Source of the DNA: Sulfobacillus thermosulfidooxidans
GTDB lineage: Bacteria; Bacillota; Sulfobacillia; Sulfobacillales; Sulfobacillaceae
DNA length: 64,000 bases
Direction of reading: 5' to 3'
Assembly: GCF_001280565.1 (NCBI RefSeq)
Contig: NZ_LGRO01000001.1
Span: 310,001-374,000 of the forward strand
The position numbers were made by a program, and so were the translations under genes. The notes beneath the pieces were generated by a model, which was given only the letters and a program-made list of their open reading frames with translations, was not told the DNA's origin and did not search any database. This document shows, in pieces, positions 21,178 through 50,366 of this stretch; the stretch's first letter is position 1, and each line of letters begins with the position of its first letter.

Positions 21178-21856
21178 CGCGTCCGAAATGGGGCACGAGA
21201 GCGTGAGAAAACAGTTGCTTCAGAACTTGACACAGCGTCGTCATCGGCTCTTGGCAACGTCAGTGAAGGGCGTTCACGACCCATGGGGAGTACAATCCGC
21301 TATTCTTCCAGATGCATAGTTTGTGCGGGCCACGTGAGTAGATAGAATGACTTGATCTTGTGAGGGTAGCGAATTGTCGTTCTGCCCTGGCTTCGTAATT
21401 GTTACGCCGTATCTACGTTGGCCAAAAAAATTGTGGCCCACCATTTGCATAGATTGGCAAATTGCCTCACTTTGTATGGATACTGACGGATCGGCGTAAG
21501 ATTTTGGTAGGGGCAGTCGATGTCGCCTGCACGTCGCTAATTGCGGAATGCTTCGACCAGCACGACTTTAGACTATTGGCTTGAGATACGGACATCAACT
21601 ATGTGTATTGTTTCGTGTCTGCGCCACCCAGATGTCTGCTCAAGGGGTACACCTTGCTCAAGCGACGAGAGAGATTTCCAAAGCTCAAGCGTCTATGCGG
21701 GCGGGAATAGCTTAGGACGATCGTACTATGTAGGAACAAAGGGATCCGCGTCGGCAGAAGTCATTCCCCGGTACATCCAGGATGCCAAGGCAAGTAGGCA
21801 CTTTCATCCCCATCCTCTAAAGGAGATGGGGAATTCTCGCCTATTCTTTAATTGGG
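21178..21856. other. Gap with probable insertion-sequence debris
   Basis: No gene is supported. At 21808-21831 CCCCATC/GATGGGG forms a hairpin near an IS607 recombinase fragment, as at the ends of TnpB-type insertion sequences. I could not recognise TnpB sequence itself. Confidence 0.35.
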
Positions 21857-22076
21857 TCACCTTAACCGAGCCGTATCTTCCCCATGATCGTGGATCACGA
21901 CTTCGACCTGTTTGGCTTCGCAAATTGCCAAGACGAGCTCTGCTTCAAAGCGTAATAGCCAATCCTTGTGGGTGACCACGAGCCGACTGACCTGATTCGC
22001 CAGGATTTCATTCAGAAGACACTTCAGGCTTTTTATAATAGTTCATCCCGGATCCCAGGTCGGCTATAATCTCGAA
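21857..22076 (-). mobile_element. IS607-family serine recombinase (TnpA) fragment
   Basis: FEIIADLGSGMNYYKK, then after a one-base deletion LLNEILANQVSRLVVTHKDW, LLRF, AELVLAICEAKQVEVVIH, ending at a TGA at 21857-21859. This is the central part of an IS607 TnpA resolvase domain (the VTHKDRLLRF segment is characteristic). The N-terminal MerR-like domain, catalytic Ser and C-terminus are missing. It is fused in frame to a truncated GGDEF gene. Confidence 0.75.
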
Positions 22077-23117
22077 CGTTCGGTCTTGGCGGGCGCGGTG
22101 GGCGACGGCTTGGAGCACATGGTCGCCGATATCATGGCCCCAGGTGTCATTGACCTGCTTAAAGTGGTCGATATCCAATAGGGCCACCACGGCGGGCAAG
22201 CCTTCGGCTGTCATCTGCTGGGCATATTCTTCGAGGGCCCGGCGATTGGGCAAGCCGGTTAAGGTATCGGTGCGGGCGGCTTCCTGTTCGCGGCGTAAGC
22301 GGTATTCTTGCTCAAAGAGGCGCCGTTGTTGGGTGAGTTGGGAGGCCATGCGATGCACGATAATCATAATCAGAGCCAGGACACCCCACGACCACACGGG
22401 CCACGCGCCGATTAAGAGGAGGGCCAGAATGCTTTCGACCACGCTGACGGGAATCGAGTCGGCCCAAATATGGCTGCGCCACAACCGCTGGACGTCGTCG
22501 TGGGGCAAAAGGGGACTGAGCAGAAAAATGCCGAGATAATTATTCAGCGTAATGACACTGATGACGGCGACCGCCACAGACACCGCGTGGGCCGTCCACC
22601 GAGGATCGGCTGGGGGAATGACGGACTGCCACCACCAGAGCCAGCCGAGAAAGAAAAGACCGGCGGTAGCATTTTGGGCGTAGGGCACCCACGTTTGCCC
22701 CATGCGCTGGAGATGCTCGGGGGTATCATTGACCAGCACAGCCCACACCCGAACGGCAAGATGGCGGGGAGAACGGCGAGCCAGGCGGGGGCCTTGCCAG
22801 CGATAGAGCAAGGTCATAAGACCATGGCCGAGAGCGGTCAGGACCGCCACGGGAATGCCCCAGACCACCCAAATCAGAACATATAAAGCGGGCACAAAAT
22901 TATGCACGGACCGTTCCCGCGTAAACGATAACGAGGGGACAGCCAGATATTGCCACCAGACGGCCAAAGGCGTGAGGGCCAATGCGCACCAGACCGACGA
23001 GCCAGTGATATGGGTGACCGTGTTCCGGAGAATGTGGGCGGTGCCCCAGAGAATCCCACTATAGGTGATGAGGCTGCCTCCAAACGGGAGGGAGACACGG
23101 AAAGTACGACGGGTCAT
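22008..23117 (-). pseudogene. Membrane GGDEF protein truncated by IS607 debris
   Basis: Starts at ATG 23117 (AAAGGAC 9 nt upstream). About six hydrophobic segments precede a GGDEF domain with TDTLTGLPNRRALEEYA and VALLDIDHFKQVNDTWGHDI. The domain stops at AVAHRARQDRT, before the RxGGDEF active loop, and continues in frame into IS607 sequence. It cannot make cyclic di-GMP. Confidence 0.75.
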
Positions 23118-23144
23118 GCGGACAAGTCCTTTCGTCATCACAAG

Positions 23145-23186: not shown

Positions 23187-23579
23187 TTAGAACGGCAAAT
23201 CATCCGGCAAAGCCGCATCATCGGCAGAGGCCGCGTCCGCAGAGACGCCCGCCGCGTCTTTGCGGCTATCCAAGAATTGGACGGACTCGGCCACCACTTC
23301 GGCGACGCGTCGCTTCGTGCCATCTTGGGCTTCATAGGAACGCACTTGCAAGCGGCCTTCCACCGCGACCAGCCGGCCTTTTTGGAGATAATTGCCCACG
23401 GTTTCGGCCAGTTTACGCCAAACCACGCAATCAATAAAATCGGTGTCGCGCTGACCTTGGGCATTGGTAAAGGGACGATCGACGGCCAGCGTGAAGGCGG
23501 CAACGGGTGTGCCTTGCGGGGTGTACCGCATTTCGGGATCGCGGGTGAGACGGCCAATGAGGATAATGTGATTCATCAT
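23187..23579 (-). CDS. ssb: Single-stranded DNA-binding protein, copy 1
   Basis: The OB-fold is clear ([65 protein letters not shown]). A short acidic linker leads to the terminal DDLPF peptide that recruits DNA repair and replication partners. The start at 23579 (MMNH) has GGAG 11 nt upstream. A close paralogue lies at 37234-37620. Confidence 0.95.
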
Positions 23580-23615
23580 GATATTCATCACTCCTTTTTG
23601 AAGGTCAAAAGCACG

Positions 23616-23649
23616 ACAAAACAAGAGCCTGCCCGTTAAAGGGCAGGCT
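23616..23649 (-). terminator. Hairpin between the 55-aa gene and ssb
   Basis: AGCCTGCCC/GGGCAGGCT, 9-bp stem, followed on the minus strand by CTTGTTTTG. The stop codon of the upstream gene lies at the edge of the stem. Confidence 0.7.
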
Positions 23650-23815
23650 AATCGGGTTCCCGATCCCCACCCTGGTCCAAGCGGCGTCGGGGCTGTCGGC
23701 GGTAGGGCGCATGACGCCCCTTTTTAGGAGGCACGGATCGGGTGACGGGGCGAATTGCCCCCCAGACCTGTCGTGGTAAGGACTGACCTTGCTTTAAGTG
23801 GTCAGAGATGCGCAT
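23648..23815 (-). CDS. 55-aa basic protein downstream of isrB
   Basis: AGGAGGT lies about 9 nt before ATG 23815. The product is strongly basic ([20 protein letters not shown] onward, with PPKKGRH and QPRRRLD). The isrB frame runs into this gene without a stop, so a fusion protein is also possible. The independent ribosome binding site makes a separate gene more likely, with the element inserted just upstream of it. Confidence 0.5.
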
Positions 23816-24961
23816 GATCAGTGGACCTCCTTCAACAGAATCTCGGCAGGATTCCCCCGCTGCAACAAAGTTCAGCGGCGGGAGGAATGCCGAGGAAGCC
23901 ACAGCGTCTATCAGAAGGCGCGTGGAACGCCGTAACAGACGCACGTGAGACACAACAAATTGGCCAAGACGGTGCCAACGGGCATCGGCGACGGCAAGGG
24001 ATCGGGTTTTCGCCGTGTGCGTATAGCCTGAGACATAGCCGCGCACCGTGCGGTCCGCTTTGGTGGCTTCGACGAAATCCCCCTTGCGGAAGCCCCATGG
24101 CGTCGTGGTGCCGCCGAACCGTTCGCGCTGGCCGCCCTGGGTCGGGTTTTGATCATGCAGCGCCCGGCGATGCCACAGGGGCCGCCCGATGACAGCAAAT
24201 GGAGCATCTGTGATGTCACAGTGTCCTTCCCATCGTTGGCCATGGTCGCCGTTTTTTTCGTAAAACGGGACATAGCGCAAAAAATGGCTCGCAGCGAGAG
24301 CGACGCCGTCGACTGCATGACTCGCGGGTGAGCGTTCAGCTTTTGTGCGAGTTTTGTACAACCCCAAAGCATCACGAAGGCGTTGGGTTTCCCATCCATA
24401 TCGGGGTGTCAGCGGCCACTGCTGGGCTATGCGGTCTATTTGCCATTGCTGTCCGACCATCACGGGGCTGAAGGATTTGTTGCCGCGCGCTTTGACGACT
24501 TCGTAGACGACGTGCGTAATCGGATAGATTTTAGCCAATTCTTGGAGTACGCGCCATTCCAGATCGCGGTTGGCCCGAATGCTGGGAGGCAACTTGTGCC
24601 CGGTACGATGGAGAAAGCGGATCGAGCGCTGGGGCGTCTTGCGATAGCGACGGAAGCCACGCAAGGTCTTACGAGTTTTCATAGCTTTTTTGACCACCGG
24701 AAAAGGGAGAACCAGATGCCCCATCCAAAGCGTGGCTTGAGGGGTTTGCACTCCCAGGCCAGAGTATAGTTTTCCCGGATCAATCCCAGCCACGGTATCG
24801 TGTGGAATCGTTTCTCTCGTCGGCGTTGTCAGTTGAAGGTAAAATGTGCCAAGCTTGTCCCGTTTGGGAATGGCGCCCCCGCTTTTGATCAGCTTGCGCG
24901 CTTTAGCTGGTGTTGTGGGACTGAGCGGTTTTCCGTAGAGCGAAACGACGGCAATGCGCAT
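23816..24961 (-). CDS. isrB: IsrB-like RNA-guided nickase (HNH-less IscB homologue)
   Basis: Begins at ATG 24961 with GGAGGA 8 nt upstream. Residues 8-30 (GKPLSPTTPAKARKLI) are the PLMP domain; RuvC-I is GIDPGK (Asp61); an Arg-rich bridge helix spans about 93-120; RuvC-II is VVYEVV (Glu154); RuvC-III is SHAVDG (His215, Asp218). Only about 60 residues separate RuvC-II and III, so the HNH domain of IscB is absent, which defines IsrB. GFRKGDFVEA and RLGQFVVSHVRLLRR form the C-terminal guide/target-binding part. All catalytic residues are present, so single-strand cutting is expected. No stop occurs before 23648. Confidence 0.85.
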
Positions 24962-25270
24962 TGAGGATAGTCCTCCTTCTTGCGAAGTTTGTGTGGCACA
25001 CAGGCCACGTCCCATCGACCATGCGACTGTAGGCTGTGTCGTCGGCGTAAAAAAGCCGACCTGACGTGGACTCTCACGCCCCATCGGAACACGGAACTTG
25101 GGTAAAGATTCCGCGGCGTTAGTCCTACAGTGCCGATGACAATGGTCTAGTGCAATGCTTGCGTCGGGCAAGTCTCTACCCAAGCCTCCACCTAGGGCCA
25201 ACGGCTCAGGTGGGGGTCATTGACTGGCAAGTCGTCAGAGCCGCTGTGAGCCCTTCTACGCGAGCAAAAA
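24962..25270 (-). ncRNA. Omega RNA (HEARO) of the IsrB element
   Basis: The noncoding stretch directly upstream of isrB carries blocks typical of HEARO/omega RNA: GGCTCACAGCGGCTCTGACG (starting near 25252), CCCCCACCTGAG, AGGTGGAGGCTTGGGTAGAG and ACTTGCCCGACGC, followed by several short stems such as GTCGGCTTTTTTACGCCGAC. In IscB/IsrB systems the guide is about 16 nt at the 5' end, here about 25254-25270, taken from DNA flanking the element. The 3' end near the isrB start is approximate. Confidence 0.75.
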
Positions 25271-25396
25271 CGGTGAGGATAGGTTTTTTATAAGGATATG
25301 TGATGAGATGCCGCGCTAAATGGCTGAGAGGGCACGCCCTGCGGGATAGGAAAAGCCGGCTCGTTGTCACGGGCAGGCTTCTCATGGTCAAACTTT

Positions 25397-25567
25397 TTAT
25401 GAGGTCAGCAGACGGATTAATTGCTGGCGCACAGGCGCTGGCAGGTCCTCGACAAACATTTCGTGGCGTGCCAGCCCTGCGGCTAAGTCCCGCGCAATTT
25501 CACGCAGAGCCACAATCCGTTGAGGATCCGCCCGGAAGGCATGGTGGTGTCTTTTGAGGTGTGACAT
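25397..25567 (-). CDS. 56-aa hypothetical protein
   Basis: AGGAGG precedes ATG 25567. The product starts MSHLKRHHHAFRADPQRIVA and has a long amphipathic helix, ending PAPVRQQLIRLLTS. Its scale resembles small regulators, but no family is recognised. It lies 96 nt after another small minus-strand gene. Confidence 0.55.
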   Translation of the reverse strand: MSHLKRHHHAFRADPQRIVALREIARDLAAGLARHEMFVEDLPAPVRQQLIRLLTS

Positions 25568-25815: not shown

Positions 25816-26370
25816 AGTGATCACCTTTTTATGGTATGTAGTCTGTCGAATTGAGCAGGATGAACCCTTTTCAGATAGCTAAGCGTCTTCAAAATGTCGT
25901 GTCAACCTCTCAAGGAGTTTTAAGCATCGTCCAAGGTTGTGCGTGCAAAAAATACGGTGATGTTTCAAAAAGCTGGCAAAATCTTAAAAAATATTGAATA
26001 AGCACTCCAAAAGAAAGATCCCAGGCCACCGTCACAGGAAGCGCGTACTTTAGGATGGGAAGCTAAAGCGCCTTACACCGCGATGGCGCAGTGTTCCTGT
26101 GACGCATGGGGGTCTCCTGGGTGGGCAAGGCCCAGGTGCGTTACGGGATAGGTTCCCGCGCCTTACGCCGCGATGACGCCGCGCTAGTGCCTTGCGCCAG
26201 TCTTCGGACCCCTCCATCCGAAAACGTGACACGATTCGGAGAGTTCCCGCTGGAAAATGACGAGAGAACTGCCCAAACGTGATTGATCCCCCTACTGTCT
26301 GAATAGACCGTAGGACGCGCCAGGAAGGGTTTGAGTGAAAAATAAAAAGATGATACCGCGTAAGGGACAT
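25816..26370. repeat. Gap holding a near-identical pair of short direct repeats
   Basis: No gene is supported. GCGCCTTACACCGCGATGGC (about 26068) and GCGCCTTACGCCGCGATGAC (about 26158) are direct repeats 90 bp apart, with a related TGCGTTACGGGA between. Their role is unknown; they could be a protein-binding or recombination site. Confidence 0.4.
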
Positions 26371-44993: not shown

Positions 44994-45941
44994 TTAGTGC
45001 GAAGCCACGCCGGATGACAGGGTTAACGCCATCAAATAGGCTTGCGCATTCGCCCATTGGGGATTATCGGGAATGTGGGCATCGGGTAAGGCAGCGGCAT
45101 AGGGAATGGCACCACCACCAACTAAGACTTTGCCCGCCAGTTTGTGCCACGTTTGGTCGAGTTTCTCAATCAACCGGTCACGCAATTGCCCTTGCAGATG
45201 CGCTAACGCCTTCTGCCGCAAGGGGTCGAGGTTCACCCGTTGGCCGTTGATATGGACGTTCGCCCGTTCTTCCACTTCGGCGGGCTGAAAGGGCAAATTC
45301 CACGTCTTGGTGAGCTCTTCGGCCACCCAGGCGTTGATCGCGTGCGTCCCCAGTTCCAAACTGCCCGCTTGATCGGGGTGAAACGAGAGGCTCCCGGTTG
45401 GCGTTTTGGTCACGACAATGTAATCGGAGGTGCGATACCCGATATCCACCACGAGATAGTCGCCGGCATCATACGACGATTGCGCGAGGAGGGTACTGGC
45501 GGCAGCCACGCCTTGGGGGAGAATTTTGGTGGTTTCGATCCAAACATGGGTGTGCGTGCCATCCGGGAGAACGATTTGCGCTTCGAGTCCCAACAGCGCG
45601 TCGGCAAAGGCTTTGCGCCCGCTACCGAACCACGAGAGCGGGAGACCAGCGGCTAAATCGACCGGGCCCATGGCGCCAATGGCGGCAGCGGCCACCAACA
45701 TGAGGTTTAAGGTTTCCGGGTCACTCGCCTTATCCCGGCTCCACCGGGGCACGGCATACGGGCGAGCAGGGTCACCGATGAGAAATTCTTCCCCGTTGAT
45801 TTGGGTGATCATCGGACGACGAGCCGCTTCACCTAATTCAACAAGAGGGGGAGCGGGAGCAATGAGGGCAGGAAACATCGTGCGTTGGGCATCGTTTAAC
45901 ACCTTAACATAGCCGTGGCCGACGTCGATGGCGATTTTCAT
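44994..45941 (-). CDS. parM: ParM/StbA-like actin for plasmid segregation
   Basis: 315 aa from ATG 45941 (AAGGAGG upstream). The actin-fold nucleotide motifs are KIAIDVGHGYVKVLN (phosphate 1), YLVVDIGYRTSDYIVV (phosphate 2), GSLELGTHAI and KVLVGGGAIPYA (adenosine). ATP-driven filaments push plasmid copies apart. Followed by the repeat region and the ParR-like gene. Upstream of it are six 22-bp iterons. Confidence 0.85.
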   Translation of the reverse strand: MKIAIDVGHGYVKVLNDAQRTMFPALIAPAPPLVELGEAARRPMITQINGEEFLIGDPARPYAVPRWSRDKASDPETLNLMLVAAAAIGAMGPVDLAAGLPLSWFGSGRKAFADALLGLEAQIVLPDGTHTHVWIETTKILPQGVAAASTLLAQSSYDAGDYLVVDIGYRTSDYIVVTKTPTGSLSFHPDQAGSLELGTHAINAWVAEELTKTWNLPFQPAEVEERANVHINGQRVNLDPLRQKALAHLQGQLRDRLIEKLDQTWHKLAGKVLVGGGAIPYAAALPDAHIPDNPQWANAQAYLMALTLSSGVASH

Positions 45942-46192
45942 AGAAACAACCTCCTTGAGGATTTTTGAACTTTTGTGAGTGCAGTTAAGTGGCAAAGTGC
46001 AGGATGAAAAACATATCACCTAATCTATCGAAAAATAAGCGACCAATCTCCTGAGACGTCATTCTATATAGGCAGGGATACAAGACAGAACCAAAACAAA
46101 CTACAAAAAATAAGCCTATATAATTACAAATTTGAGCATCGTCGGAAATACAGGACTCATAAGGGTTCTTGGTTTTTTGGAAAAGTTTTACT

Positions 46193-46324
46193 GTGAGAAT
46201 ATAAGAAGCGCAAACTAAGAATGTAAGCATTAGGACCTAAGAATATAAGGTAAGAAAACTAAGAATGTAAGCTACGCGAACTAAGAATTTAAGGCGGGCA
46301 AGCTAAGAACATAACACCCCCTTT
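46193..46324. repeat. Six tandem 22-bp iterons
   Basis: CTAAGAATGTAAGC-type units start at 46193 (degenerate), 46215, 46237, 46259, 46281 and 46303, an exact 22-bp period, about two helical turns. Such iterons bind a replication initiator or a partition protein. They lie 250 bp upstream of parM in AT-rich DNA, so this is the best candidate for the origin or centromere of the element. Confidence 0.8.
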
Positions 46325-46415
46325 ATTGCGGGAACATCCTGGGCACGATGAACTGGGCGAGACTCTAACGGATGACTTATTTGACTACTAAAAGCCCATG
46401 AAATTCAACAGGATT

Positions 46416-47291
46416 TTATTTCGGTTCATGATAAGCCGGCTGGCGAATCAAATTCCAAAAATTTTGCGGTTGGATTACGCGCTGGCCATTGCCACCGTAA
46501 ATCGTCCATTGGTGATTGATAACATAATCGAAAGGCCACATCCAAGCATAGCTGTGTTGATGGAATTGAAATGTATTCATCCACGTTTCCCAATGGATTT
46601 TCTGGGTGTTGGTTTCTGTAGGAATAAATAACACCTTCGGCGGTTCATTGCACCATGGAATATGACGCCAACCGCCTTGTAGGATTAAGCGGTCATATTG
46701 AGCAAACTTGTGTAACAAAGTTTCTTTGCGCCATGAACGTTCGACTTCAATGATCCACGGATGGTCATTCAGTCGAATGGCTGCATCGGGTTTGATATGC
46801 AAGGGATGACGGCTGGATATGATGAAATCTGTGATATGAAGATCCCAGGACGCCTCTAACCTCAAATCTTCGGCTTGTCGGGTAATTGTTAGAGCAACGG
46901 TATTGCGATCCAAATTGTGTTCAATAAAACGATTGGTGCGAATCCGTTCCGCAACCGGAACCCAATGGGGATGCATAAGGTTCCAGCCTTTTTCGTCATC
47001 ATATTGTAGTAACTCCGCTCCTCCAGGAGCTAAAGCAATAATGCGTGTGCGGCGGCCATGATAGGGCACCCACGCGGCTTGAATCAAGCCGCGTCCGCGC
47101 CAATGCCGTAAATTATGAAGGATGGTGGATCGCGGGGCCCCATACATCCAACCGGCTTGATCAATAGTTACATAGTCAACGAGGCTTAAATCCCAAAGAA
47201 AATTCATGGTATAGTCGTTGTAAGCCCGGCGACGTTTACGAGTGACCCTTACCGGTTCTGACCAGCGCATGAGATGGCGTACAGAATCCAT
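46416..47291 (-). CDS. Replication-relaxation family protein
   Basis: 291 aa. An N-terminal winged helix (LVDYVTIDQAGWMYGAPRST, then ILHNLRHWRGRGLIQAAWVP) is followed by a nuclease-like half with KPDAAIRLNDHPWIIEVERS. This fits the replication-relaxation family, which is linked to plasmid and ICE transfer. AAGGAGG precedes the ATG. It lies between the iterons and the coupling ATPase gene. Confidence 0.75.
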   Translation of the reverse strand: MDSVRHLMRWSEPVRVTRKRRRAYNDYTMNFLWDLSLVDYVTIDQAGWMYGAPRSTILHNLRHWRGRGLIQAAWVPYHGRRTRIIALAPGGAELLQYDDEKGWNLMHPHWVPVAERIRTNRFIEHNLDRNTVALTITRQAEDLRLEASWDLHITDFIISSRHPLHIKPDAAIRLNDHPWIIEVERSWRKETLLHKFAQYDRLILQGGWRHIPWCNEPPKVLFIPTETNTQKIHWETWMNTFQFHQHSYAWMWPFDYVINHQWTIYGGNGQRVIQPQNFWNLIRQPAYHEPK

Positions 47292-47312
47292 GGCAATCCT
47301 CCTTGTACAGTG

Positions 47313-50300
47313 TTAGGAATCAAGTAACCACGGCGTGTCATCCGCGACATTCTGATCGGCTGTGGATGAAGAAGACACGGCCTCTATAGGATGATCGGCA
47401 CCGTCAGGATTTTTTACCGCCGAAAACCAATCAGCATGATCCGCCAGCCATCCGGGAATTTGCACCATAAAGGCTGGACGTTCGGCCCCATGTTGTGTAA
47501 GCACCGCGGCTAATTCGCTGAGGGTGCATTGTTGATCCCGACAGATTTTTTCGACAACAGATTGAGATAATTGAAATCGTTGTGCCAGTTTTTGCACACT
47601 CCAATCGACGTTCGTGGTCTCTGCGGCCTGTGGTGAATCAACATGAGGCGAACCCGATGGAGGAGAATCGTCCATCGCAACAAGCGAAGGCGTAGATGGT
47701 GCCGATGTCTCGATGTTATCAGACGTTGAGGGAATCGAGACGTCAACATCCGGGACGGTCAAACACGCCGGCTGCTGCTGTAAATGATACGTGGCCCAGT
47801 CCTCATGCGCTTCCGCCCGCCAGTCAATGGTCTGCGCCACAAACGGCGATTGAACCGCGCCTTTGGCCTGCCACAAGCAAATGGCCGTGTAGTCCGGCAA
47901 CCGCATAATGTCGTCGGCCATGAACCGTTCCAAGGCTTGGGCTTCTTCTTGCAACGTAATGTTGTTAATGTAAATCGTCATCATTTGCTGCATCAGTTTG
48001 ATAGCTTCCGCCGGTTCAGGAATCCGGTGAATAATCCGGTTTTGGCAGAGGTTAATCACGCCCGCTTGCAGCGCCGGATCTTTGAGTTCGAGCAAGAACC
48101 GCGTGGCCAAGACTGTCTGAAACCCATAGGCCCGGCCCAAGGCCAGGTAATCGAGGAATTGCGGGGACAGATATTCTTGCGCTTCATCATAGAGCAGTTT
48201 GACCGGAATCCGGGTGGATTCGGCTTGCAGTCCTTGCCGCTGAATGGCGTGCCACAAGAGCTGGGTAATTAAAATCCCAAACAGCCGGACGTTGGACCGT
48301 CCGCCCATGCGAGCCATGTCGAGATTGACAATGACGACTTGCCGCTCACGAATCACCCGATCCCAGTCAATAAAGCGACGGCGTGTGCCATCGGGCATGA
48401 TGACGCCGAGCGCCGCTTGCAAGGTGGTATGCCGGAGCAATTCGTCCAGTTTGTTGCGCGGCGGCGCCACCGCTTCTTCCCAAAACCGGGGATTGTTCGC
48501 TTGAAGATTCGGTAACACCACCGTCCAAAACTCTTGCGTCTGAGGCGGACAGGCTGGGTTCTTTAAGGCTTGCGCTAACAGACCGACTCGGTAGCCTTCG
48601 TCTGTCAAAAATCGGTAGGCATCACGTAAAGTATAGGGATGATCCGGCGTCTGCGCGGCTAACAAGGCGGTAAACGTGTGTCCCAAAATTTCTCGCGACC
48701 GGGCGCCGACGGCACTGGCTCCAAAGATTTCTTGCAAGGTTTCCAAGAGTTCAGTGACGGCAGACGCGGCACTGGCCGTGGCATCCAGCGGCTGTAACGC
48801 CCACGGATTGGCGGGATCGGTGGGATCGAACCAAATCACCTGCCGGTTCGGCGGCACCAACCGCAAGGCGGCCTGCGCGGTATCTTTGCCAATATCGAAT
48901 AACACGACGGCTTCCCGTGGCGTTCCGTCCTCACGGGTTAAGCGCACCGCATTTTTGAACACGTTAATCAAGGACGTGGATTTGCCCGATCCTTGAATGC
49001 CTAAGAGCAAGAGATTCTTGATAAAATCTTCCGGGTAAAGGCCGACCCGATCCTGCCCTTCGGCGGTGACAATGACATGACGGGGATCGCGGCTTAACGT
49101 CCGGGGCGCGGGCATCCGCCGGGTCATGCTGCGATCGAGATCCGCGACGCGCAAGCGTCCGGTGGGTAAGGCAAAGAAGGCGGCACATTCCCCGGACCAG
49201 AGGGGATGGCCGCCGGCTAACGGCCAAATGCGGGGCACAGCTTGTTGCATCCAGGTGACCCATTTCTGCCGCCACACGATGACGTTATGTGGACGCAAGA
49301 CCGCCCAGCGGTTTTGCAGGCCCCACGCGGAAATAATCCGTTGGAGCACATCATACGTGGGCGCGCTGGCCCGAATTTCGGTCATCCACCGCCCGCGTCC
49401 CATTTGCTGTAAGGCCGTATCCGCCGCTTGTTGGAGCGCGACATTCTCTTCCCAGGTGGCATATTGGGCGGCGGTTTCGAGCCGTTTCATGGCCCGCCCG
49501 GTTCCAATGGGCACCCATACCACTTGCCAGACAAAATCCGGCAACGGACCTGCTTGCTTCCAGGCTTCGCGGGCCACGGCCTGCACCAGCACTTCGAGGG
49601 GTAAGGCCGAATATTGATCGACGAGATCGACCAGCCGAATGGCGGTGCGATAGCGGAAGCCCCACCGCACCACTTGATGGTCCGGGACGTGGATCGGATG
49701 GGGCCAGACCATAAACCGCACATTCTGGTAAGCATTTTGCCACGCGGCTAACACCCGATCCGTTAAGTTCGCCGGCGTGCCTAAGAGAATGTGCATGCGG
49801 TCATCAACGGTCTGGTCGCGGATAATCATTAAGGTCAGCGGCGGTGCGCTGACAAACAGCCGGTACACCCACCACGAGCCGACCCACCGGGACCGGGGCC
49901 ATAAGGCATCCCAGAGTTGGTCAAAGAGTTGGCGCATGGCATCCGGCGTCACCACATCGTTTTGGAACAGATGGACTTCGGTCCATTGCATCGTCGCAAT
50001 CCGGCGTTGGCGTAACAGAAAGCGGGTAATGAGGATGACGAGAAGGAGCGGACTGAATCCGAGAACGAGCCACCCGATGGCGGTGAGCAGGGCATGGATG
50101 GCCACCAAGACCCAAGTCGGATGCGGCGCAATGGTCACGCGTTGGCCGTGGCGATACAGCGTGACCGAATGCGTCAAAAAGGGAATGTGGGTCCATAAAC
50201 TCTGAATCCCGGACCACACTTGCTGACCGAACACGCGGGGGCCAAAAGTCCATAACCCGATGCCAACGAGCGTAAGACCGATAACGAGCCAAAATAAGGT

Positions 50301-50366
50301 CTCGCGGCGGGCACGTCCTCGGTATTCGGGGAGCGACGGGGGTTTGCCGTTATCATAGGGCGTCAT
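47313..50366 (-). CDS. VirD4/TraG-like conjugative ATPase (coupling protein)
   Basis: 1017 aa. Two N-terminal TM helices (about 22-45 and 84-118) anchor it. Walker A is GIQGSGKST at 456-464; Walker B is VKLLYDEAQEYL about 250 residues later, in a TraM-recognition-like domain. A Ser/Pro/Asp-rich C-terminal tail may bind substrate. GGAGGCG lies upstream and the ATG overlaps the VKOR gene end. It would pump plasmid DNA through a transfer channel. It may instead be a TcpA/FtsK-related transfer ATPase. Confidence 0.8.
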   Translation of the reverse strand: MTPYDNGKPPSLPEYRGRARRETLFWLVIGLTLVGIGLWTFGPRVFGQQVWSGIQSLWTHIPFLTHSVTLYRHGQRVTIAPHPTWVLVAIHALLTAIGWLVLGFSPLLLVILITRFLLRQRRIATMQWTEVHLFQNDVVTPDAMRQLFDQLWDALWPRSRWVGSWWVYRLFVSAPPLTLMIIRDQTVDDRMHILLGTPANLTDRVLAAWQNAYQNVRFMVWPHPIHVPDHQVVRWGFRYRTAIRLVDLVDQYSALPLEVLVQAVAREAWKQAGPLPDFVWQVVWVPIGTGRAMKRLETAAQYATWEENVALQQAADTALQQMGRGRWMTEIRASAPTYDVLQRIISAWGLQNRWAVLRPHNVIVWRQKWVTWMQQAVPRIWPLAGGHPLWSGECAAFFALPTGRLRVADLDRSMTRRMPAPRTLSRDPRHVIVTAEGQDRVGLYPEDFIKNLLLLGIQGSGKSTSLINVFKNAVRLTREDGTPREAVVLFDIGKDTAQAALRLVPPNRQVIWFDPTDPANPWALQPLDATASAASAVTELLETLQEIFGASAVGARSREILGHTFTALLAAQTPDHPYTLRDAYRFLTDEGYRVGLLAQALKNPACPPQTQEFWTVVLPNLQANNPRFWEEAVAPPRNKLDELLRHTTLQAALGVIMPDGTRRRFIDWDRVIRERQVVIVNLDMARMGGRSNVRLFGILITQLLWHAIQRQGLQAESTRIPVKLLYDEAQEYLSPQFLDYLALGRAYGFQTVLATRFLLELKDPALQAGVINLCQNRIIHRIPEPAEAIKLMQQMMTIYINNITLQEEAQALERFMADDIMRLPDYTAICLWQAKGAVQSPFVAQTIDWRAEAHEDWATYHLQQQPACLTVPDVDVSIPSTSDNIETSAPSTPSLVAMDDSPPSGSPHVDSPQAAETTNVDWSVQKLAQRFQLSQSVVEKICRDQQCTLSELAAVLTQHGAERPAFMVQIPGWLADHADWFSAVKNPDGADHPIEAVSSSSTADQNVADDTPWLLDS

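What the first reader, a model, noticed from the sequence alone, without database searches (positions are those of the whole stretch)
23816..25270. IsrB nickase with its omega RNA
The protein has PLMP, bridge helix and RuvC I-III with all catalytic residues, but only about 60 residues between RuvC-II and III, so no HNH. The upstream HEARO-type RNA with a visible guide slot (about 25254-25270) makes a complete RNA-guided element. IsrB is far rarer than IscB and this one may be from a thermophile.
Basis: partly seen in the sequence, partly recalled or inferred. Interest (0 to 1): 0.85.

Follow-up and report, generated by a model that had tools for sequence, protein, structure and literature searches.

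The report
IsrB nickase and its guide RNA
A mobile DNA element in a Sulfobacillus-family bacterium carries a small RNA-guided DNA-nicking protein, IsrB, together with its guide RNA; it is a sound new member of a known family of Cas9 forerunners, not a new kind of system.

Summary
The finding holds, with corrections. The protein (CDS 23648-24961, minus) is an IsrB: its best solved match is DtIsrB (8dmb; E 7.6e-52, Foldseek TM 0.84), RuvC residues are intact, and 64 residues without HNH separate RuvC-II from RuvC-III. The omega RNA scaffold is 24962-25224. The guide was misplaced: all copies start at 25224 and flanks differ upstream, so the guide is 25225-25240 (to 25244), not 25254-25270. The 3' boundary is TTGA (23832-23835), the published DtIsrB TAM; element-free paralogues of a sister insertion join guide-like sequence directly to TTGA or a close variant. 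Low dN/dS (0.08-0.10) and sister copies at many sites argue for a real, recently mobile family. New member of a known kind, beside cyanobacterial IsrBs. Nicking was not tested.

The parts
25225..25240 (-). guide slot, 16 nt CTCTGACGACTTGCCA (20 nt = 25225-25244), the flank directly 5' of the omega RNA scaffold
   Evidence: Homology of all copies begins at 25224 and every copy has a different upstream flank; the first scaffold base equals model position 1 of HEARO in the sibling L051; the DtIsrB guide is 20 nt directly 5' of its scaffold (PMC9581776). Exact guide length inferred.
24962..25224 (-). omega RNA scaffold (263 nt), also the element's left end; its terminal hairpin holds the Shine-Dalgarno sequence
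   Evidence: Held-out covariance model R2: 254.6 bits, full length, only hit in the window; 28 of 76 pairs with compensatory changes, 70 double-change cells against 16.3 +- 3.2 shuffled; nexus pseudoknot columns 140-143/228-231 98% paired with 2 compensatory pairs.
23873..24961 (-). IsrB proper (residues 1-363): PLMP, RuvC I D61 (codon 24779-24781), bridge helix, RuvC II E154 (24500-24502), RuvC III D218 (24308-24310), TAM readers R331 and Q334
   Evidence: phmmer to 8dmb E 7.6e-52 over residues 2-355; Pfam RRXRR E 2.2e-36; AlphaFold confident over 1-363 and Foldseek top hit 8dmb; D61, E154, D218 invariant in 30 IsrBs; dN/dS about 0.08-0.10.
23648..23872 (-). read-through tail (residues 364-437): stop codon lost, frame runs through the end hairpin and into the downstream ORF
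   Evidence: Stops present before the hairpin in S. harzensis, S. benefaciens and Peptococcaceae copies; tail pLDDT under 50.
23842..23894 (-). right-end hairpin CTCGGCATTCCTCCCGCCGC...GCGGGGGAATCCTGCCGAG
   Evidence: Same hairpin at the same distance from the boundary in eight copies.
23832..23835 (-). TTGA directly 3' of the element: target-site motif, equal to the published DtIsrB TAM
   Evidence: TTGA at this place in 7 of 8 copies, TTTA in one; TTGA TAM preference of DtIsrB (PMC9581776); element-free paralogues of a sister insertion carry guide-like sequence directly followed by TTGA or a close variant.
23648..23815 (-). host ORF of 55 aa ([11 protein letters not shown]...) just upstream of ssb, with its own RBS (AAGGAGG) retained at the insertion border
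   Evidence: Free-standing homologues of query residues 377-435 in relatives; no Pfam match.
23187..23624 (-). ssb (single-strand binding protein) next to the insertion; context only
   Evidence: Pfam SSB E 4e-39.

Best explanation
This is an HNH-less OMEGA element (IsrB type, IS200/IS605 superfamily), about 1.39 kb long, inserted upstream of a 55-aa ORF and ssb in a plasmid- or ICE-like region of a Sulfobacillus-family genome. A transcript starting in the flank carries the flank as guide, then a 263-nt omega RNA, then the IsrB message. IsrB binds the RNA, recognises a TTGA (NTGA) TAM through R331 and Q334, and its RuvC domain nicks the non-target strand of DNA matching the flank, that is, of the empty donor site or an uninterrupted allele, probably favouring retention or spread of the element. 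Transposition would need a Y1 transposase in trans, since none lies in the element. Shown here: protein family and fold, RNA, boundaries, TAM-like flank, mobility of the family. Inferred: expression, guide use, nicking, biological role. In this copy the IsrB frame has lost its stop and is read into the neighbouring ORF.
For: DtIsrB is the best solved match by sequence and fold (TM 0.84 by target length). RuvC and TAM residues are conserved. Held-out RNA model 254.6 bits, covariation; the clade model also hits 22 of 33 other loci, mostly just upstream of IsrB frames and including DtIsrB. Sharp shared boundary at 25224 and TTGA at the other end. Sister element in relative G028: identical left ends at four different sites, and element-free paralogues that join guide-like sequence to TTGA or a close variant without a gap. 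Purifying selection. An intact Y1 transposase elsewhere in the genome.
Against: No biochemical test. No empty site for the window's own insertion: its left flank is absent from the 33 relatives apart from one 25-nt match, and guide plus TAM has no match in IMG/VR or elsewhere in its own genome with up to 3 mismatches. The lost stop codon may mark the start of decay; many sister copies in relatives are broken. Guide length is taken from DtIsrB.
Confidence: 0.93

Rival explanations
1. A decaying remnant: an IsrB element whose protein has lost its stop codon and no longer works, with the RNA persisting only as sequence.
For: Stop lost by a deletion of roughly 20 nt before the right-end hairpin; decayed copies are common in relatives; tail predicted disordered.
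Against: Residues 1-363 are uninterrupted with all catalytic and TAM residues. dN/dS about 0.09 against S. harzensis and S. benefaciens copies, though pairwise and with dS near saturation, so it reflects the family more than this last branch. The disordered tail lies beyond the TAM-interacting domain and need not disturb folding.
Confidence: 0.25
2. A degenerate IscB that recently lost its HNH domain.
For: The NCBIfam IscB model matches residues 5-162, below its cut-off; the genome also holds an IscB-like locus with HNH.
Against: The best match by far is DtIsrB over residues 2-355, including the part after the HNH position, whereas IscBs align mainly at the N-terminus; all 30 aligned relatives lack HNH.
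Confidence: 0.02
3. The upstream conserved stretch is only the transposon end (DNA hairpins for a Y1 transposase) and not a guide RNA.
For: The left end of such elements doubles as transposase substrate; expression was not tested.
Against: 263 nt with covarying helices over the whole length, HEARO-like architecture, nexus pseudoknot, and a Shine-Dalgarno hairpin as in DtIsrB (PMC9581776).
Confidence: 0.04

Closest known systems
DtIsrB, Desulfovirgula thermocuniculi (PDB 8dmb; PMC9581776)
   Same: Domain order, RuvC residues, short linker in place of HNH, TAM-reading Arg and Gln, TTGA motif, scaffold of about 262 nt with nexus pseudoknot and Shine-Dalgarno hairpin.
   Different: About 40% identity; a segment of about 19 residues after RuvC III absent from DtIsrB (shared with cyanobacterial IsrBs); RNA too diverged for RF02033; C-terminal read-through in this copy.
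Cyanobacterial IsrBs (Brasilonema, Scytonema, Crocosphaera and others; the group of CwIsrB/DsIsrB)
   Same: Neighbouring group in the tree, 40-48% identity, shared segment after RuvC III.
   Different: Lacks the bridge-helix insertion and, for part of that group, the RuvC insertion.
IscB with HEARO RNA (OgeuIscB and relatives)
   Same: PLMP, bridge helix, RuvC, upstream HEARO-type RNA.
   Different: IscB has an HNH domain and cuts both strands; this protein has none.

Membership tests
IsrB | PLMP domain, bridge helix and split RuvC I-III with catalytic residues | tested here: met
IsrB | no HNH between RuvC-II and RuvC-III | tested here: met
   64 residues from E154 to D218; no HNH match
IsrB | cognate omega RNA of about 260-300 nt directly upstream, with a 5' guide | tested here: met
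   guide place from the boundary
IsrB | TAM of NTG(A) type 3' of the target | tested here: inconclusive
   flank evidence agrees (TTGA at 23832-23835 and in 7 of 8 copies; empty paralogues), but no TAM assay
IsrB | RNA-guided nicking of the non-target strand | not testable with these tools
   needs biochemistry
Rfam HEARO RF02033 | score at or above the gathering cut-off (83 bits) | tested here: not met
   no match at E up to 10 in 24900-25500; known DtIsrB also falls below the cut-off
autonomous IS200/IS605 element | Y1 transposase (TnpA) inside the element | tested here: not met
   none between the ends; one intact TnpA elsewhere in the genome plus degraded copies; mobilisation in trans is inferred
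IscB | HNH domain inserted in RuvC | tested here: not met

The most novel reading that the evidence does not exclude
The read-through IsrB is a working variant in which the nickase carries the small basic host protein as a C-terminal addition, coupling its expression or localisation to the neighbouring ssb locus.
Probability: 0.05. Interest if true: 0.5.

Novelty: new member of a known kind. Interest (0 to 1): 0.35.

Why it matters
It extends IsrB to the Sulfobacillus lineage with an RNA that the public HEARO model misses in this copy, gives a covariance model and precise ends for that clade, and supplies sister copies with distinct guides and element-free paralogous sites from which the guide-TAM rule can be read. 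If the host is a thermophile, as known Sulfobacillus are, it would be a useful small nickase to test.

Tried and rejected
Empty site of the window's own insertion: the left flank (DNA and its 56-aa ORF) is absent from the 33 other family genomes apart from one 25-nt match; plasmid records show only ssb and short unrelated matches; viral contigs have no guide-plus-TAM match. S. benefaciens copy: the identical flank in G030 diverges 64 nt before the element, so it is not an empty site. S. harzensis copy: its flank is a multi-copy sequence and uninformative. Short 1-75 RNA matches in G028 looked like miniature elements but are contig ends broken at identical copies. Adaptor pseudoknot: pairing is possible but the register differs between subclades, so it was not counted.

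Full report
OBSERVATION. The frame named in the finding is real. The longest ORF is 23648-25201 minus; the likely start is ATG 24961, giving 437 aa. The N-terminus reads GKPLSPTTP (PLMP-type), followed by RuvC I (GIDPGKLYSG, D61), an Arg-rich bridge helix, RuvC II (VVYEVVK, E154) and RuvC III (SHAVDG, H215/D218), with 64 residues between E154 and D218 and no HNH. Pfam gives RRXRR at E 2.2e-36; the NCBIfam IscB model covers only residues 5-162 and stays below its cut-off.

PROTEIN. Against solved structures the best match is DtIsrB (8dmb), E 7.6e-52 over residues 2-355; IscBs match weakly, mainly at the N-terminus. AlphaFold with 30 relatives gives a confident model for 1-363 and a disordered tail; Foldseek ranks 8dmb first (E 1.6e-32, TM 0.84 by target length). 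In 30 aligned relatives D61, E154 and D218 are invariant, R331 and Q334 nearly so. By the alignment these last two correspond to DtIsrB R323 and Q326, which read the G and the A of the TTGA TAM (PMC9581776). A quick tree puts the window with S. harzensis and S. benefaciens copies, then Peptococcaceae, beside cyanobacterial IsrBs; DtIsrB and another IsrB of the same genome (C1:577 kb) lie in a different clade (SH-aLRT only, some forks open). Pairwise NG86 dN/dS against the Sulfobacillus copies is 0.08-0.10, with dS near saturation.

OMEGA RNA. RF02033 finds nothing in 24900-25500 at E up to 10, although it finds six other places in this genome. It does match the S. benefaciens sibling (39 bits, E 1.6e-4) from the same first base, GTCAATGACC, and DtIsrB (56 bits), both below the cut-off of 83. 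An alignment of 13 copies gives 76 pairs, 28 with compensatory changes and 70 double-change cells against 16.3 +- 3.2 in shuffles and at most 17 in slid versions; the structure was derived from the same alignment, which favours it. A model built without the window copy finds 24962-25224 minus at 254.6 bits and nothing else in 64 kb. The nexus pseudoknot expected from DtIsrB (loop CCCA with TGGG) is 98% paired with two compensatory pairs, both from one Peptococcaceae sequence. The clade model also hits 22 of 33 other loci examined, mostly just upstream of the IsrB frame.

BOUNDARIES AND GUIDE. Ten copies share homology from the same base, window 25224, and their upstream flanks are all different. 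Four sister copies in G028 share identical left ends with four different flanks. The guide is therefore 25225-25240 or -25244, not 25254-25270. At the other end eight copies share the hairpin GGCATTCCTCCC...GGGGGAATCCTGCC and then TTGA (7) or TTTA (1). In G028 the flank of one left end (...TCTCGCCGACATACAGAGCGA) and one right-end flank (TTGAACCAGG...) both belong to a repetitive coiled-coil gene; element-free paralogues read ...TCTCGTCAGCACGCCGAGCGG-TTGAATCAGG (L195) and ...TCTCGACAGCACGCGGAGCGA-TTAAATCGAG (L197), with no gap or duplication at the joint. The two ends lie on separate contigs and the gene is repetitive, so their pairing is inferred.

READ-THROUGH. Relatives stop just before the right-end hairpin; the window copy lacks roughly 20 nt there and reads on through the hairpin into the next ORF. 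That 55-aa ORF, with its own RBS, precedes ssb; homologues of it stand alone in relatives and it has no Pfam match. Whether the fusion is made or matters is unknown.

MOBILITY. No transposase lies in the element. The genome has one intact Y1 transposase and several degraded ones, including a fragment at window 21468-21638. Family members are numerous and partly decayed among relatives. The window's own empty site was not found.

MECHANISM. By homology to DtIsrB (PMC9581776), the complex should nick the non-target strand some 8-11 nt upstream of the TAM in DNA matching the flank. The role, for example acting on the empty donor to retain the element, is inferred from what is proposed for related OMEGA proteins (PMC10278001 abstract, for TnpB) and is not shown here.

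VERDICT. A genuine IsrB with its omega RNA, a new member of a known kind, in a lineage for which I found no description in the open-access papers searched (that library is partial).

Noticed in passing
window 21468-21638 (+): Degraded Y1 transposase (PF01797) fragment with an internal stop, about 2 kb from the IsrB element; another degraded copy lies just outside the window (C1:309672).
   Followed up: partly
window 22008-23141 (-): GGDEF protein truncated after about 62 residues of the GGDEF domain, apparently cut by an insertion or rearrangement near 22040.
   Followed up: no
window 44994-50366 (-): Actin-like (ALP) protein, Replic_Relax protein and a large ATPase that looks TraD-like: the window looks like an integrated plasmid or conjugative element.
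   Followed up: partly
L008/L049 (C1:577 kb) and L009/L050 (C1:608 kb): Two further, distantly related HNH-less IsrB-like genes with HEARO RNAs in the same genome, one in the DtIsrB clade, the other in a divergent group.
   Followed up: partly
L001/L010 (C1:215 kb): An IscB with HNH split into two frames, beside the best-scoring HEARO of the genome.
   Followed up: no
L163-L166 (G028 contig ends): Four contigs end inside identical left ends of the sister IsrB element with different flanks, a sign of recent transposition.
   Followed up: partly
window 26068-26179: Two 22-nt near-palindromic repeats (GCGCCTTACACCGCGATGGCGC) 90 nt apart, unexplained.
   Followed up: no
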